In this document: positions 20,840 through 32,636 of the stretch, piece by piece
Position numbering within the stretch: position 1 is the first letter of the stretch
Layout: every line of letters begins with the position of its first letter
DNA from: an uncultured Chloroflexota bacterium
Lineage (GTDB): Bacteria; Chloroflexota; UBA11872; UBA12225
Assembly: GCA_903836285.1 (NCBI GenBank)
Contig: CAILQO010000173.1
Coordinates: forward strand, 1-32,636
DNA length: 32,636 nt
Reading direction: 5' to 3'
Made by a program: the position numbers and the translations under genes
The notes under the pieces: model-generated
Seen by the model: the letters and a program-made list of their open reading frames with translations, nothing else
The model's database searches: none
What the model was told of the DNA's origin: nothing

Positions 20840-22621
20840 ATGCGGTCATCCTTCATGGGGCTGACGACCCTGCTGCGCGCACTGCAGGCGCAGCAAGCGG
20901 CGATGGACGTCACCAACCAGAATATCGCGAACGCCAACACTGTCGGCTATACCCGCCAAGAGGCGAAGCTGGTCCAGACGGCGCCCCACGCTGGCTCAGG
21001 CTACAACCGCCCGGTCGGCGGTGGTCTGATGATGGGCACCGGGGTCATGGTCTCGGAAATCCTGCGCCAGCGGGACTCGTTCGTTGACCAGCAGTTGCGG
21101 ACTGAAACGGCGCAGCAGAAGCGTTGGCAGGTTGTCTCGGACGGCGTGCAGCAGGTCGAGGCGCTCTTCAATGAACCATCGACCAACGGCTTGGGCAACC
21201 AGCTCACTACCTTTTTCAATGCATGGAGTGAGCTGAGCACCAATCCGGGCAGCGCGACGGCGCGGGCGCAGTTGCAGACGCAGGCGCAGACAGTTGTTGC
21301 AGCATTTCAGGACCTCTCGCAGCAGCTTGAGGCCTTCCGCCAGAACCAAGACTTCAGGCTCACTTCGGTAGTGAGCGAGGTCAACGACCTCTCGACGCAA
21401 ATCGCGTCGCTCAACCTGCAGATCAGGCGCTCCACCGCGGTTGGTGACAACCCGAACGACCTGATGGACGCGCGCGACCGATTGATCGATCAGGTCGTGA
21501 CCCTGACTGGGGCGACCTACCAAGAGCAGCCGGACGGTTCCGCGACGGTCCGCCTCGGTGGGCGGATCCTCGTCGACGGCACCAAGGCGAACGCCCTGCT
21601 TGCCGAACTGACGCCGAAGGTCAGCGGGCAGGCATCGCACACGGTCCAGTGGGCCCCGGGAGGGACCGCGGTGGCCGGCCTAGGCGGCACCATCGGTGCG
21701 CTCATCCACCTGCGCGATGGCGTCGTGGCGGACAAGGTCTCCAAGCTGAACCTGCTCGCTTCGACGCTCGTGACCTCAGTGAATGCGCAACATGCCCAAG
21801 GACGTGGCACCGGCATCTACGCCTCGTCAACCACCAACACCGACTTCTTCGATACGCAGCGGACAGCGACGCCGCTGCGCCAGACGGGTCTTGGCGACAC
21901 CTTGGTTGCCGGCAGGTTCACGGTGGGCACCACGTCGATCACGATCGATCCGGCGACCGACTCGCTCGATACGGTCATGGGCAAGATCACCACGGCGGCC
22001 GGTGGTGGGGCGACTTGGAACCTTGATGCGACGACGGGCCGGATCGTCATCTCATCGACGAATGCGGTCTCGTGGGGGAGCGCAACCGATACCTCGAACT
22101 TCCTGCAGGTCACCGGTTTGGCAGCGTCGGGAGTCACGGGAACGAGTCCGCGGGTGTACACCTCGGCATTCCCGCTAGGGATCGTGAAGGCGGCGACCTT
22201 GTCGCTTGACCCTCTGGTCGCCTCGGACGTGCAGGCGATCCGGGCGTCGGGTACGACGACGACCAATGGTGTCACCTCGTCGGCGGGCGCGGGCGACAGC
22301 TCGAACGCACTCAAGATCGTTGGCCTCGCCACGACGCAGTGGGCGGCCCTGGGGTCGGCAACCTTCGACGACTACTACGCGTCGATGATTGGTTCGCTCG
22401 GCATCGAATCACGACAGGCGACGCAGATGGCGACGAACCAGACGGCGCTGGTCGATCACCTCACGGCCCGGCGCGAGTCTGCTTCCGGGGTGAACCTCGA
22501 TGAGGAGGCGGCGCAGCTCATCCGCTTCCAGCGCGCCTATCAGGCTGCGGCGCGCGGCATTACCGCCCTGGACGAACTGCTGTCGATGACGATCAACAGC
22601 ATGGGTCGCGTCGGCCTGTAG
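20840..22621 (+). CDS. flgK: Flagellar hook-associated protein FlgK (HAP1)
   Basis: MGLTTLLRALQAQQAAMDVTNQNIANANTVGYTRQEAKL; C-terminal SGVNLDEEAAQLIRFQRAYQAAARGITALDELLSMTINSMGRVGL. Confidence 0.96.
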   Translation: MRSSFMGLTTLLRALQAQQAAMDVTNQNIANANTVGYTRQEAKLVQTAPHAGSGYNRPVGGGLMMGTGVMVSEILRQRDSFVDQQLRTETAQQKRWQVVSDGVQQVEALFNEPSTNGLGNQLTTFFNAWSELSTNPGSATARAQLQTQAQTVVAAFQDLSQQLEAFRQNQDFRLTSVVSEVNDLSTQIASLNLQIRRSTAVGDNPNDLMDARDRLIDQVVTLTGATYQEQPDGSATVRLGGRILVDGTKANALLAELTPKVSGQASHTVQWAPGGTAVAGLGGTIGALIHLRDGVVADKVSKLNLLASTLVTSVNAQHAQGRGTGIYASSTTNTDFFDTQRTATPLRQTGLGDTLVAGRFTVGTTSITIDPATDSLDTVMGKITTAAGGGATWNLDATTGRIVISSTNAVSWGSATDTSNFLQVTGLAASGVTGTSPRVYTSAFPLGIVKAATLSLDPLVASDVQAIRASGTTTTNGVTSSAGAGDSSNALKIVGLATTQWAALGSATFDDYYASMIGSLGIESRQATQMATNQTALVDHLTARRESASGVNLDEEAAQLIRFQRAYQAAARGITALDELLSMTINSMGRVGL

Positions 22622-22835: not shown

Positions 22836-24050
22836 ATGCGAGTGACGACCCGGATGCTGACAAGCCAAGTAGCTTCGCAGATTATGGCGAACGCCGAGGC
22901 GATGCAGCAGACGCAGCGTCAGCTGACCAGCGGCAAGCGGATCACTCGTCCCGGCGATGACCCGGCCGCTGCCGCTGCGGGCGTGCGACTCCGGGCGCAG
23001 CAGTCCCGTGACGCCCAGTACTTGCGCAACATCGAGCACGCGCGCACGTGGCTGGATACCACCGACCGGGTCCTCAGCGATATTGGCGACCTGCTCGGGC
23101 GCGCCCGCGAGCTTGCCGTACAGGCGTCGACTGGCACCTTCACCAGCGGTGACACCAAGCAGCTGGCGGAGGAGATCAGCGCGATCCGAAGCCAGATCAT
23201 TAGTGCAGTGAACGGGACGGTTGACGTCGATCAGCACGTCTTCTCCGGCCAGAAAAGCGATATCACCCCCCTTGTCTTGGACGCGAACGGAAACGCTTCG
23301 TACCAAGGAGACACGGGGGTGACGATCGGTACCGGAACTGGTGCGGGCAGTGATCTCGCTCCAGCGAATGGCATTCCTAACGTGGACAACGGGATCGTCC
23401 AGATCGCCGCGCAAAGCCCAGTGACCTCGAGGGGCAGCTACTCCATTGCGGTGAGCGCGCCAGTAGGTGGCTCAGTGACAGTGACGCTGACGCGCGCTTC
23501 TGATGGCAAGCAGGAGGCGCAGACGGTAGCGGTGCCTGCCTCCGGGAAGACCTCCGCACTTGAGTTCTCCACTGTAGGGATAAACGTCGTCGTCGGAAGT
23601 GGGTTAACGGCGATCGCCGGCGACAATGTGTTTGAGGTCGATGGCCTTGGCCTCGGCCACGAGGTGGCGCAGGGAGCGGTGCTCGAGACGAACATTTCGG
23701 CGTCGGCGATGCTCCCGATGTTGGCGCAGCTGAAGACGTTTTACGATGCCCTGCTCAGCGGCACGGCAGTGAACTCGGCGTCGAATACCGCGATTGGCCA
23801 GATTGACGTTGCCGTCGACCGGATGCTCTCGCTGCGGGCGCAGGTCGGGGCCAAGACGAACCACCTCGACTTCGCGCAGGCGCGCGGTGAGGCTCGCGAC
23901 GTTGAGAATGGTCGCCTGATCTCCGTGAATGAGGACATCGACCTGACGGAGGCACTGTCGCGCCTCACGACGCAGCAGACGGTCTACAAGGCCTCCCTCG
24001 AGATTGGTTCCAGAGTGATGCAGAACAGCCTCATGGACTACCTCCGTTGA
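22836..24050 (+). CDS. flgL: Flagellar hook-associated protein FlgL (HAP3)
   Basis: MRVTTRMLTSQVASQIMANAEAMQQTQRQLTSGKRITRPGDDPAAAAAGVRLRAQ; C-terminal LTEALSRLTTQQTVYKASLEIGSRVMQNSLMDYLR. Confidence 0.93.
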   Translation: MRVTTRMLTSQVASQIMANAEAMQQTQRQLTSGKRITRPGDDPAAAAAGVRLRAQQSRDAQYLRNIEHARTWLDTTDRVLSDIGDLLGRARELAVQASTGTFTSGDTKQLAEEISAIRSQIISAVNGTVDVDQHVFSGQKSDITPLVLDANGNASYQGDTGVTIGTGTGAGSDLAPANGIPNVDNGIVQIAAQSPVTSRGSYSIAVSAPVGGSVTVTLTRASDGKQEAQTVAVPASGKTSALEFSTVGINVVVGSGLTAIAGDNVFEVDGLGLGHEVAQGAVLETNISASAMLPMLAQLKTFYDALLSGTAVNSASNTAIGQIDVAVDRMLSLRAQVGAKTNHLDFAQARGEARDVENGRLISVNEDIDLTEALSRLTTQQTVYKASLEIGSRVMQNSLMDYLR

Positions 24051-24718: not shown

Positions 24719-25213
24719 ATGCTCGTCCTGAGCCGGAAAACAGAGCAGCGTATCCGGATCGGCGACGAGATCGAGGTGATCGTGCTCGCGATCGAGGGCG
24801 ATCACGTCAAGATTGGCATCCAGGCGCCCCGGCACATCACGGTGCTGCGCTACGAGCTTGTGCAGGACGTGACCGACGAGAATCGTCGGGCTGCCGGAGC
24901 GGCGGCGGCCTCAACGCAGATACCCGCCGACGCGATGGCTGGCCTTGGGTCGCTCCTCGGTGGGTTGGGTCGTGGTGGCTCGCAGGTGCCCGGTGGTGCG
25001 ATTGGTGGGCCCGGGACCCCCTCGGCGCCAGCCTCACGCCCGGCGATCCGCGGGCAGATCCCACAGCGCCCGGGAGGCCCGCCCGGCCAACCGCCGAGGC
25101 CCCGCCCGAACCAGTCGTTCCGTGTCGGCGGTTCCATTCCACCGGGAGGGGAAGGCCGGCCCCAACGCCCGCCCTCACCGCCGCGCCCTGACCAGAGGCC
25201 CGACCGCACCTGA
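24719..25213 (+). CDS. csrA: CsrA carbon storage regulator with ~100-aa Pro/Gly/Arg-rich C-terminal extension
   Basis: MLVLSRKTEQRIRIGDEIEVIVLAIEGDHVKIGIQAPRHITVLRYELVQDVTDENRRAA is CsrA; continuous ORF to residue 164. Confidence 0.92.
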   Translation: MLVLSRKTEQRIRIGDEIEVIVLAIEGDHVKIGIQAPRHITVLRYELVQDVTDENRRAAGAAAASTQIPADAMAGLGSLLGGLGRGGSQVPGGAIGGPGTPSAPASRPAIRGQIPQRPGGPPGQPPRPRPNQSFRVGGSIPPGGEGRPQRPPSPPRPDQRPDRT

Positions 25214-27307: not shown

Positions 27308-28246
27308 ATGACCGCCGAGATTCGCTATGGCAAGGGCAACGTCTGCGTCTACCGCTTCTACGGTGCGCCCCTCGCGGGGGTGACGCCGATCCCAGAGTCG
27401 CCGTTTTCGGGTCGCACCAATACGCTATTTGCGTACGACATCGACGTCGAGGTGTACGGCGACGCCTTCCTGCCTGCGTACACCGAAGGCGACAACTCCC
27501 AGGTCGTCGCGACCGACTCGATGAAGAACTTCATCCATGGGCAGGCGATCGCGTACACCGGCGCCACGCTTGAGGGCTTCCTGGAGTTCCTGGGCACGCA
27601 GTTCCTGTTGACGTACGCCCAAATGGGGTGGGTGCGCGTGCGCGGACGTGAGATCCCGTTCCACGCGGCGCCGGTGCCAACCGAGGAGGGGCTTTTTGAG
27701 GCAAGCCCGGTGCTCTTCAGCCATGGCCGGGGCGAACATGCCACCGCCGAACTGGACGTCCACCGCGATGGTGACGGCACCAAGGTGACCGCACTCCAGG
27801 CCGGCATGGTAGACATCCACCTGATCAAGGTCACCGGTTCTGCATTCGCCCGGTTTGTGCGTGACGGGTTCACGACGCTGGAGGAGCGGGTCGACCGGCC
27901 GCTGTACATCTTCATGGACGTCGGCTGGAAGTACACCGACCCGCACGACGCGATCGACCCGACCCACGCCCGCTACGTGGCGGCAGAGCAGGTGCGTGAC
28001 CTGTGTGCAGTGACGTTTCACGACTTCGTCAGCATGTCGATCCAACACCTGATCTGGGAGATGGGCAAGCGGCTGCTTGCGCGCTTCCCGCAGCTCGCAT
28101 CCATCAGCTTTGAGGCGCAGAATCGCCTGTGGGACGTCGTCGTGCGCGCAACCGATGGGACGAAGGTTGCGTCGTACTGCGACCCGCGTCCGCCGTACGG
28201 CAGCCTGTCGCTGGTAATCCATCGCGATGACGTGGCGGGCCAGTAG
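27308..28246 (+). CDS. Urate oxidase (uricase)
   Basis: NTLFAYDIDVEVYGDAFLPAYTEGDNSQVVATDSMKNFIHGQA, TLEGFLEFLGTQFLLTYAQ, HLIKVTGSAFARFVRDGFTTLEERVDRPLYIFMDVGWKY; RBS GAAGGAGG. Confidence 0.96.
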   Translation: MTAEIRYGKGNVCVYRFYGAPLAGVTPIPESPFSGRTNTLFAYDIDVEVYGDAFLPAYTEGDNSQVVATDSMKNFIHGQAIAYTGATLEGFLEFLGTQFLLTYAQMGWVRVRGREIPFHAAPVPTEEGLFEASPVLFSHGRGEHATAELDVHRDGDGTKVTALQAGMVDIHLIKVTGSAFARFVRDGFTTLEERVDRPLYIFMDVGWKYTDPHDAIDPTHARYVAAEQVRDLCAVTFHDFVSMSIQHLIWEMGKRLLARFPQLASISFEAQNRLWDVVVRATDGTKVASYCDPRPPYGSLSLVIHRDDVAGQ

Positions 28247-28248
28247 CG

Positions 28249-28611
28249 ATGGCGAGTGAAGGGCGCCTGACGACGCATGTCCTCGACACGATGCACGGGG
28301 GCCCGGCGGTCGGGGTGCGGGTCGAGTTGCGCCGCGTCGTCGGCGACGTGGTGACCGTGTTGCGGGACGCATGTACCAATGCCGACGGGCGCTTGGACGG
28401 CGGACTGCTGTCCGGTGACGACTTGCATGCGGGCCGCTACGAGATCAGCTTCCACGTGGGCGACTACTTCCGGGCACGTGGCGTCGTGCTGCCAGACCCG
28501 ACGTTCCTCGATGTAGTCCCGGTGCGCTTTGCGGTCGCCGACCCAGCCGGACACTACCACGTGCCGTTGCTGGTATCCCCGTGGGCGTACTCAACGTACC
28601 GGGGTAGCTGA
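28249..28611 (+). CDS. uraH: 5-hydroxyisourate hydrolase (transthyretin-related)
   Basis: LTTHVLDTMHGGPAVGVRVELRR, HYHVPLLVSPWAYSTYRGS (terminal YRGS signature). Confidence 0.96.
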   Translation: MASEGRLTTHVLDTMHGGPAVGVRVELRRVVGDVVTVLRDACTNADGRLDGGLLSGDDLHAGRYEISFHVGDYFRARGVVLPDPTFLDVVPVRFAVADPAGHYHVPLLVSPWAYSTYRGS

Positions 28612-28613
28612 AG

Positions 28614-29906
28614 GTGGTCACGACGGCCGAGCTAGCGGCGACGGTCATGGCCCGCGCCGACCGGCTTGGGTCGATCTCCGAAGATGCCGGGCGACTGGTG
28701 CGTCGGCCGCTGACCGGGCCGGCCCGTGATGCTGAGGACCTCGTTGCATCGTGGCTGACGGAAGCTGGCGCCACGGTCACGCGCGACGCGGTCGGAAACG
28801 TGTTCGGCCGACTTGAGCACGCTGGCGACGGCGGACCGGCGCTGGTCATCGGGTCGCACGTGGACACGGTCCGCGACGCTGGAAAGTACGACGGGCCGCT
28901 TGGAGTCCTGCTGGGCATCGCCGCGATGGCGTACCTCGCGGCGCGCGAGGACGAAGGCGACCCGGGGCTGCCGTTCGCGTTGGAGGTCGTTGCGTTTGCC
29001 GGCGAGGAAGGCGTGCGCTTCGCGGCACCGTTTCTTGGGAGCCGATTCGCCACCGGCACGCTCCCTGACGAGTGGCTCGCGCGCGCGGATGACGAGGGCA
29101 TCACCTTGGCCGGTGCGATCTGCGACGCGGGGGGCAACTCGGATGCGCCGCCACGGGCGAGGTATCGGGGCGCCGACGTTCTTGCCTACATCGAACCACA
29201 CATCGAGCAGGGCCCGATCGTGGACCTCGCCGGGGCGGCGCTGGGGGTCGTCGAGGCGATCGTGGGGCCGGAGCGCCTCAGACTGGCCTTCACGGGGCAG
29301 GCGAACCATGCGGGCACCACGCCGATGCCTGCACGCCGCGACGCATTGGCAGGCGCGGCGGAGGCCATCCTCGTGGCCGAGCGGGTCGCCCGCGATGTGC
29401 CAGGCCTGGTCGCTACGGTGGGAGAAATCGCAGTCGCCCCGGGCGCGGCGAACGTCATCCCGGGGGCGGCGACGATCACCATGGACATCCGCCACGCCGA
29501 CGATTCGGTGCGCGTGTCAGCGGTCGGATCGATCCTCGAGGCGGCGCGCCAGGCCGCCGCGAGCCGCGACCTTGACCTCGTCGTCACCCCGGAGATGGAG
29601 GTCGCCGCGACGCCGTGTCACGGTGCCGTGACCGCGGCGATCCAGGCGGCTGCGCGGCGCACGGGCATGGGTCCGCTGCGCGTGATGACGAGCGGCGCCG
29701 GGCACGACGCGATGGTGATGTCATCGGTCGCGCCGATCGGCATGCTGTTCGTGCGATCCCCCGGTGGGATCAGCCACCACCCCTCCGAGTCGGCCTTGGG
29801 AGGCGATGTCCTCGCCGCACTGCGCGTATTGATCGCGACGGTTGACGAGGTGGCAACGAAAGTGCGCGCGGGATCGTTCCTGGCGCGATCGGAGGTCGTG
29901 GCATGA
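28614..29906 (+). CDS. allC: M20-family Zn-dependent amidohydrolase, probable allantoate amidohydrolase
   Basis: VIGSHVDTVRDAGKYDGPLGVLLGI, FAGEEGVRFAAPFLGSR, IEPHIEQGPIV, GQANHAGTTPM, SGAGHDAMVMSSVAPIGMLFVRSPGGISHHPSE; GTG start; located in the purine operon. Confidence 0.88.
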   Translation: MVTTAELAATVMARADRLGSISEDAGRLVRRPLTGPARDAEDLVASWLTEAGATVTRDAVGNVFGRLEHAGDGGPALVIGSHVDTVRDAGKYDGPLGVLLGIAAMAYLAAREDEGDPGLPFALEVVAFAGEEGVRFAAPFLGSRFATGTLPDEWLARADDEGITLAGAICDAGGNSDAPPRARYRGADVLAYIEPHIEQGPIVDLAGAALGVVEAIVGPERLRLAFTGQANHAGTTPMPARRDALAGAAEAILVAERVARDVPGLVATVGEIAVAPGAANVIPGAATITMDIRHADDSVRVSAVGSILEAARQAAASRDLDLVVTPEMEVAATPCHGAVTAAIQAAARRTGMGPLRVMTSGAGHDAMVMSSVAPIGMLFVRSPGGISHHPSESALGGDVLAALRVLIATVDEVATKVRAGSFLARSEVVA

Positions 29907-31266
29907 CGGACCGGCTGCTGGTGCGCGGGGCGACACTCGTCCGCCCAGACGGCGGTACGGATGCCGACATCCTTGTCGAGGACGGCGTGGTGGTGGCGAT
30001 AGGCCGAGACCTTGCCGCGCCGGCCGGTGCGGCCGAGTTTGATGCCGCGGGCCTGCACGCCTTTCCCGGCGCAGTGGACACTCATGTGCACTTCAACGAG
30101 CCGGGGCGCGCGGACTGGAGGGCTTGGCCACCGGAAGCCGTGCCCTTGTCGCTGGCGGAGGCACGACATTCGGCGACATGCCGCTCAACAACCTGCCACT
30201 GACGCTCGATGGGCCATCGTTCGACGAGAAGGTTGCGATCGCGTCACGGGTGTCGCACGCTGACTTTTCCCTTTGGGGAGGGCTGGTCCCCGGCAACGTC
30301 GCTGCCCTGCCGGAACTCCATGCCCGTGGAGCAATCGCCGTCAAAGCGTTCATGTCGGACAGTGGCCTGCCTGAGTTCCCCGCATCCGACGACTACACGC
30401 TGCTTCGCGGGATGGAGGTTGCGGCCTCGCTTGGGATGATCGTGGCGGTCCACGCCGAGAGTGATGCGATCACGCGGGGCTTGACGGCGGAGGCGCGCGG
30501 GGCGGGTCAGCGTGGCGCGATGGCGTGGGCCGCGTCGAGACCGGTCCTCGCCGAGACTGAGGCAATCTCCCGCGCGATCCACCTTGCCGAGGCAACCGGC
30601 GCGCGCCTGCATGTGGTGCACGTCAGCAGTGGGCGTGGTGCCGTCATGATCGCTGAGGCGCGCGCGCGAGGCGTCGACGTAACGAGCGAGACGTGCCCGC
30701 ACTACCTGACGTTCACCGACGAGGACGTGGCCCGTCTCGGTGCAATTGGCAAGTGCGCGCCGCCGGTACGTAACGCCGAGGAACGCGCCCGGCTCTGGGC
30801 CGCGGTCACCTCGGGTGCGGTGGACATGGTGGTGTCTGACCATTCGCCGTCGCCGCCATCCATGAAGGAGGGTGACGACTTCTTTGCGATGTGGGGTGGC
30901 ATTCCGGGCGTGCAGACGACTCTCGGGACACTGCTGGAAGAGGGGCCGGCTCACGGGCTTGACCTCGGTTCCATCGTGCGATTGGTCGCCGCCGGCCCGG
31001 CGGCCCGGTTCGGCCTAGCCCCAAGCAAGGGAACGATCTCAGTGGGGGCGGACGCCGATCTCGCCCTCGTGGATCTGCGCAACCGGCACGTGGTTTCGCA
31101 GGCGACCTTGCACTACCGGCACCCACAGTCGCCGTTCGTGGGGCGGACGGTGCGCGGCCTTGTGGTGCGCACCATTTTGCGCGGCGAGGTTGTCGCCGAG
31201 AAGGGGGCGCCCGTCGGCGAACCTCGTGGACGACTGGTGCGCCCAGTTGGTCGCGTGGCGGCGTAG
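29903..31266 (+). pseudogene. allB: Allantoinase interrupted by an apparent single-base frameshift near 30116-30120 (ORFs 29903-30202 and 30124-31266)
   Basis: Frame 1: GAVDTHVHFNEPGRADW; then -1 frame: (E)GLATGSRALVAGGGTTFGDMPLNN...AIAVKAFMSDSG...HVVHVSSGRG...TSETCPHYLTF...VVSDHSPSP. Joining the frames restores W-E-G-L-A-T-G-S-R. Confidence 0.88.
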
Positions 31267-31338: not shown

Positions 31339-32112
31339 ATGCCCTTGCCCCCGACGACGCGGACGCGACTTGGTGCGCGGCACGCGGTGATCACGGCCGA
31401 AAGCCATGTACGTACGACTCTGCCCGGGTGGACCAGTAGCCGCGTCATTGTGACGGTTAGCCCGCAGATGGGCGCCGGGTTCGTCCAATACGTCGCCGAA
31501 ATGGAGGCCGGTGCACGGGCCGGTGCACCGCCTCCCGGTGTCGAGCGGTTTGTGTTTGTCGTCGACGGCGGTGTTACCGCTGAGGCGCGCGGGATCGGGC
31601 GCGTTGACCTCGGGTACGAGGGCTACCTCTACGCGCCGCCGGGGGCACTGTTGGCACTCGTCGCCACCGAGGCGACGCAGTTGCTCATCGTTGATCGCCA
31701 CGCCATCTCGGTGCCGGTCGGTGCGAACCCGCCGGCGGCGATTGCCCGGTCGTTGGCCGACGTGCCGAAGCTGCCGTTTCTGGGCGACCCAGATGCACGC
31801 TTGCAGACACTGATCCCGGACGACCTTGGCTACGACTTCGGCATGAACGTGTTCACGTTTGAACCTGGCGCGTGCCTGCCGTTGGTCGAGTCGCACTACA
31901 TGGAACACGGCCTGCTGTTCTTGCAGGGCGGCGGGATTTACCGATTGGAGGACGACTGGTACCCGGTGCAGGAGGGCGACCAGTTGTGGATGGGGCCGTT
32001 CTGCCCGCAGTGGTTCGCGGCGGTCGGCAAGGAACCGGCGCGGTACCTGTACTACAAGAATGGGAACCGGCACCCGCTGCGTGACGTCACAACCGTTCCC
32101 GGGGCCGAGTAA
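31339..32112 (+). CDS. allE: (S)-ureidoglycine aminohydrolase (bicupin)
   Basis: LGARHAVITAESHVRTTLPGW...FVQYVAEMEAG...YDFGMNVFTFEPGACLPLVESHYMEHGLLFLQGGGIYRLEDDWYPVQEGDQLWMGPFCPQWFAAVGKEPARYLYYKNGNRHP. Confidence 0.93.
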   Translation: MPLPPTTRTRLGARHAVITAESHVRTTLPGWTSSRVIVTVSPQMGAGFVQYVAEMEAGARAGAPPPGVERFVFVVDGGVTAEARGIGRVDLGYEGYLYAPPGALLALVATEATQLLIVDRHAISVPVGANPPAAIARSLADVPKLPFLGDPDARLQTLIPDDLGYDFGMNVFTFEPGACLPLVESHYMEHGLLFLQGGGIYRLEDDWYPVQEGDQLWMGPFCPQWFAAVGKEPARYLYYKNGNRHPLRDVTTVPGAE

Positions 32113-32113
32113 C

Positions 32114-32636
32114 GTGGCGGTGGTTGACGACGCGCGCCTTGCAATCGATGGCGCCCGCATCGAGGCAGAACTCGCGCACCTCGGGACCTTTACGGAGGCT
32201 CCGCCTCCCGCGGTGACGCGCGTCCTTTGGACGCCCACCGACCTCGCCGGACGGGCGTACGTGCGCACCTTGCTTGAGGCCGAGGGGCTGACGATCCGCA
32301 CCGACCCAATCGGCACGATCTTTGCCCGCTGGCATGGCACGGAGGGTTCGCTCGCGCCGGTCGCGACAGGTAGCCACGTGGATGCGATCCCGAACGCGGG
32401 GCGCTACGACGGGTGCTACGGCGTGGTCGGTGCCATCGAGGCGCTTCGTGGCCTGCGTCGCGCCGGGTTCGTTCCACGGCGGTCGATCGACGTGGTCGTG
32501 TTTGCGTCCGAGGAGCCGACGCGCTTTGGCGTGGGATGCCTCGGGAGTCGGTTGATGACCGGGGCGATGTCGGCGGACGCGGCGCGGGCCATGCGCGACG
32601 CTGACGGCGTGTCTGTCGAGGATGCCCGGTTGGCGG
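32114..32636 (+). CDS. M20-family amidohydrolase, N-terminal part (ureidoglycolate amidohydrolase-like), truncated by window end
   Basis: Manual translation from GTG 32114: VAVVDDARLAIDGARIEAELAHLGTFTEAPPPAVTRVLWTPTDLAGRAYVRTLLEAEGLTIRTDPIGTIFARWHG...VATGSHVDAIPNAGRYDGCYGVVGAIEALRGL...VVVFASEEPTRFGVGCLGSRLMTG; no stop before the window end. Confidence 0.85.
   Translation, partial: MAVVDDARLAIDGARIEAELAHLGTFTEAPPPAVTRVLWTPTDLAGRAYVRTLLEAEGLTIRTDPIGTIFARWHGTEGSLAPVATGSHVDAIPNAGRYDGCYGVVGAIEALRGLRRAGFVPRRSIDVVVFASEEPTRFGVGCLGSRLMTGAMSADAARAMRDADGVSVEDARLA

What the first reader, a model, noticed from the sequence alone, without database searches (positions are those of the whole stretch)
30100..30205. 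Allantoinase split by one missing G while all catalytic motifs remain intact
Seen directly: frame 1 runs ...THVHFNEPGRADW then diverges into RAWPPEAVPL; the downstream frame reads (E)GLATGSRALVAGGGTTFGDMPLNN. Adding one G at ~30116-30118 (tggagg to tgggagg) restores continuous W-E-G-L-A-T-G-S-R. The metal-binding HVH, candidate carboxylated Lys (AIAVKAF), His (VVHVSSG), CPHYL and Asp (SDHSP) are all preserved. Either an assembly/sequencing indel, a very recent inactivation that would block the pathway at allantoin, or less likely a recoding event. No canonical slippery heptamer is apparent at the junction.
Basis: partly seen in the sequence, partly recalled or inferred. Interest (0 to 1): 0.7.

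Follow-up and report, generated by a model that had tools for sequence, protein, structure and literature searches.

The report
Allantoinase with one missing base
In one draft genome of an uncultured Chloroflexota bacterium, the gene for the purine-degrading enzyme allantoinase lacks a single G that every close relative has; this is most likely an isolated sequencing/assembly error or a very recent mutation, not a new way of reading genes, and is ordinary.

Summary
The allantoinase gene (window 29903-31266) changes frame at 30117-30118: the first 72 codons lie in one frame and the rest in another, and one G of a GGG run is absent relative to four orthologues in the same family, all uninterrupted there. 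All metal-binding residues are present. The gene sits in an otherwise intact urate-to-ureidoglycine operon and is the only allantoinase found in the 89%-complete assembly. Both halves show the strong purifying selection of their neighbours (dN/dS 0.12 and 0.09 against 0.12-0.16), so any loss is too recent to have left a trace. A survey of 184 gene regions found no other clear internal frameshift, at 64% sensitivity, so the assembly is not riddled with indels. Recoding is very unlikely: no slippery site, no unusual RNA fold, and relatives need no shift. An apparent second broken allantoinase in a relative is a 25-N scaffold gap. Without reads, an assembly error (about 0.5) and a real recent frameshift (about 0.45) cannot be separated. 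Low interest.

The parts
27308..28246 (+). uricase (factor-independent urate hydroxylase)
   Evidence: TIGR03383, 212.9 bits against a cut-off of 168.4
28249..28611 (+). 5-hydroxyisourate hydrolase
   Evidence: TIGR02962, 130.4 bits against a cut-off of 87.45
28614..29906 (+). M20-family allantoate amidohydrolase-like protein; its stop overlaps the allantoinase start
   Evidence: NF006775 E 2.3e-141 (471.3 bits, just under its cut-off of 479); TIGR01879 above cut-off
29903..30202 (+). 5' part of the allantoinase gene: 72 homologous codons (with HVH), then 27 out-of-frame codons to TGA
   Evidence: TIGR03178 positions 2-70; orthologue comparison; translation
30117..30118 (+). site of the missing base: GG where orthologues have GGG
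   Evidence: DNA alignment with four relatives
30118..31266 (+). 3' part of the allantoinase gene in the next frame, open to its stop; first possible start TTG 30124
   Evidence: TIGR03178, 434.9 bits against a cut-off of 357.85 from this part alone; 3hm7 alignment
31339..32112 (+). (S)-ureidoglycine aminohydrolase
   Evidence: TIGR03214, 265.8 bits against a cut-off of 200
31859..32636 (+). start of a second M20-family amidohydrolase (N-carbamoyl/allantoate amidohydrolase type), cut by the contig end; the listed frame begins inside the previous gene, and homology starts near codon 95
   Evidence: TIGR01879 domain match on the fragment; full-length orthologue L055:7600-9117:- scores 356.6 bits against a cut-off of 204

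Best explanation
A conventional AllB-type allantoinase gene carries an isolated one-base deletion in the consensus of a draft metagenome-assembled genome. I lean slightly towards a base-level error of the draft consensus (a miscalled GGG run or a collapse of strain variants), with the living population making a normal, intact enzyme. Shown: the one-base difference, the intact orthologues, the purifying selection on both halves, and the lack of other lesions. Inferred: that the base was lost in the data and not in the cell.
For: The assembly is a draft: 619 contigs, 89.2% complete, 4.5% contamination. Four relatives have the extra G and read straight through. Both halves keep dN/dS of 0.119 and 0.089, like the neighbouring pathway genes at 0.124-0.162. 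All metal ligands are intact and there is no other stop or indel in the gene. The other pathway genes are intact, and there is no second allantoinase to make the loss tolerable.
Against: The assembly is not generally indel-rich: no other clear internal frameshift in 184 gene regions (198 kb) at 64% sensitivity, and none elsewhere in this 32.6-kb contig. The site lies 2.5 kb from the contig end in a run of only three bases, which is not where short-read assemblies usually fail (general knowledge). A mutation a few generations old would look identical.
Confidence: 0.5

Rival explanations
1. A real, very recent frameshift mutation (fixed or polymorphic in the sampled population) that inactivates allantoinase and stops urate breakdown at allantoin.
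For: The rest of the sampled assembly is clean of frameshifts, so random consensus error is not rampant. Recent single-base frameshifts in accessory catabolic genes are common in bacteria (general knowledge).
Against: No sign of relaxed selection or second hits. The downstream and upstream pathway genes are intact. Neither point excludes a mutation only a few generations old.
Confidence: 0.45
2. Programmed or spontaneous -1 ribosomal frameshifting (or transcriptional slippage) restores the full-length enzyme.
For: Only that the two frames overlap and both remain under selection.
Against: The junction GAC TGG AGG is not slippery: a -1 slip would put tRNA-Trp on CUG. There is no long homopolymer for polymerase slippage. 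The downstream RNA folds no better than shuffles (z 0.76; z -0.63 for the wider stretch). Four close relatives are in frame without any shift, so there is no conserved recoding.
Confidence: 0.02
3. Two separate polypeptides (99 aa from ATG 29903 and 380 aa from TTG 30124) assemble into a split allantoinase.
For: TTG 30124 follows a GGAGGG stretch.
Against: The purine-rich stretch is only about 1-2 nt from the TTG, too close for a ribosome-binding site. The split removes HVH from the barrel, and no relative has a split gene.
Confidence: 0.01
4. An old pseudogene.
For: None beyond the frameshift.
Against: dN/dS 0.09-0.12 and no further stops or indels.
Confidence: 0.02

Closest known systems
AllB-type allantoinase (TIGR03178; solved chains 3hm7, 8hfd, 3e74)
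   Same: Sequence, metal ligands, and a urate-catabolism operon around it
   Different: One base missing, so no single open frame encodes it in this consensus
Orthologues in G001, G003, G006 and G007 of the same family
   Same: 84% (G001) to 71% amino-acid identity over the gene, excluding the gap in G006; in G001 the whole window is collinear
   Different: All uninterrupted at the site; G006 has an unrelated 25-N scaffold gap near its 3' end

Membership tests
AllB allantoinase (TIGR03178) | Curated family score | tested here: met
   434.9 bits from the 3' part alone, cut-off 357.85; the orthologue L039 scores 527.5
AllB allantoinase (TIGR03178) | Metal-binding HxH, carboxylated Lys, two His, Asp | tested here: met
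   All present, HxH in the first frame and the rest in the second
AllB allantoinase (TIGR03178) | One continuous reading frame | tested here: not met
   One-base frameshift at 30117-30118; allantoinase by ancestry, activity of this consensus gene not expected
AllB allantoinase (TIGR03178) | Hydrolysis of allantoin | not testable with these tools
   Needs an enzyme assay
Programmed -1 frameshifting | Slippery heptamer X XXY YYZ in frame | tested here: not met
   Codons GAC TGG AGG GCT at the junction
Programmed -1 frameshifting | Stimulatory downstream structure | tested here: not met
   z-score 0.76 for 30122-30210; pseudoknots not tested
Programmed -1 frameshifting | Conservation of the shift in relatives | tested here: not met
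   Four relatives are in frame
Decayed pseudogene | Relaxed selection or further lesions | tested here: not met
   dN/dS 0.119 and 0.089; no other stop or indel

The most novel reading that the evidence does not exclude
A non-canonical recoding event, without slippery heptamer or RNA structure, restores full-length allantoinase in this one species.
Probability: 0.02. Interest if true: 0.6.

Novelty: already known. Interest (0 to 1): 0.08.

Why it matters
If the deletion is real, this population would stop urate breakdown at allantoin while keeping every other pathway gene, which is a minor ecological point. If it is an error, the practical lesson is that automatic annotation of this genome will report allantoinase as missing or truncated when it is probably intact. 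In neither case is a new mechanism involved.

Tried and rejected
A second allantoinase: the next hit (C275:26518) scores below the cut-off and reads as a dihydroorotase (its 'TAG inside' is its own stop); no PuuE-type hit. Repeated allantoinase breakage in the family: the apparent frameshift in G006/L042 is a run of 25 N. Further frameshifts in this genome: three first candidates (L087, L116, L122) were antisense or shadow frames across neighbouring genes. In the more sensitive pass six other candidates lay at the 5' ends of stop-to-stop frames, where the query runs into a preceding gene; I take them as boundary effects, and only L087 was inspected residue by residue. The FliW dN/dS is an alignment artefact (stop characters dropped) and is not used. 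Paper searches found nothing specific on this gene in Chloroflexota.

Full report
What is there. The window is a whole contig (C173, 32,636 bases) of a 3.66-Mb, 619-contig draft genome (89.2% complete, 4.5% contamination). At the 3' end of the window lies a urate-degradation operon on the + strand: uricase, 5-hydroxyisourate hydrolase, an allantoate amidohydrolase-like M20 enzyme, allantoinase, (S)-ureidoglycine aminohydrolase and the start of a second M20 amidohydrolase.

The frameshift. The allantoinase begins at ATG 29903, overlapping the stop of the gene before it. Its first 72 codons match the orthologues. After TGG 30116-30118 the frame diverges and stops at 30200 (99 aa). Homology resumes at once, without gap or overlap, in the frame that starts with GAG at 30118 and runs to 31266. 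At DNA level the orthologues read GACTGGGAAGG or GACTGGGAGGG and the window reads GACTGGAGGG, so one G of a three-G run is missing. This is far beyond chance: the 3' part alone scores 434.9 bits to the allantoinase model and the 5' part matches positions 2-70 of the same model.

Is the enzyme otherwise sound? Yes. The metal ligands are all present, divided between the two frames. Against G001 the dN/dS (Nei-Gojobori) is 0.119 for the 5' part and 0.089 for the 3' part, compared with 0.158 for uricase, 0.129 for the HIU hydrolase, 0.162 for the amidohydrolase and 0.124 for ureidoglycine aminohydrolase. There are no further stops or indels. An old pseudogene is excluded; a mutation a short time old is not.

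Error or mutation? I sampled about 620 kb of this genome and 1.17 Mb of G001 and looked for genes whose homology changes frame. The allantoinase was the only one found in G000 among 241 matched stretches, and the reverse comparison found none in G001. A simulation with one base deleted per stretch gave a sensitivity of 99/241. A more sensitive version on 184 gene regions (198 kb) detected 117 of 184 simulated deletions, the allantoinase, and six further candidates that all lie at the 5' ends of stop-to-stop frames and are best read as the query running into the preceding gene (only one of the six was inspected residue by residue). So the assembly has few indels of any origin. This survey counts errors and real mutations alike and so cannot tell them apart. 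Reads would, but none are held.

Recoding. The junction codons GAC TGG AGG GCT cannot re-pair after a -1 slip, no long homopolymer is present, the downstream RNA is not unusually stable (z 0.76), and relatives at 71-84% identity need no shift. A split enzyme is disfavoured because the purine-rich stretch is too close to TTG 30124 and no relative is split.

Back-up genes. The only other allantoinase-like long hit is dihydroorotase on C275. PuuE-type allantoinase is absent. The genome is incomplete, so absence is not proof.

Verdict. This is an ordinary single-base frameshift in a draft genome: about 0.5 consensus error, about 0.45 real recent mutation, about 0.02 recoding, with the small remainder shared by an old pseudogene and a split enzyme.

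Noticed in passing
window 24719-25213 (+): CsrA (first ~60 residues nearly invariant in relatives) carries a tail of about 100 residues rich in Pro, Gly and Arg; tails of similar make-up are present in G001 and G003. CsrA is usually only 60-70 residues long (general knowledge).
   Followed up: partly
L042 4080-4104: The allantoinase of the UBA2235 record is interrupted by 25 N (scaffold gap), which imitates a frameshift in translated searches.
   Followed up: yes
window 1-24050: Most of the contig is collinear with one contig of the same-genus genome G001; its later part holds flagellar genes (FlgK at 20840, FlgL at 22836) just upstream of CsrA and the urate operon.
   Followed up: partly
L039, L041 record titles: Two related metagenome-assembled genomes are titled 'Thermoflexus hugenholtzii JAD2', although they group with the UBA2235 record; the organism names look like automatic nearest-name labels.
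   Followed up: no
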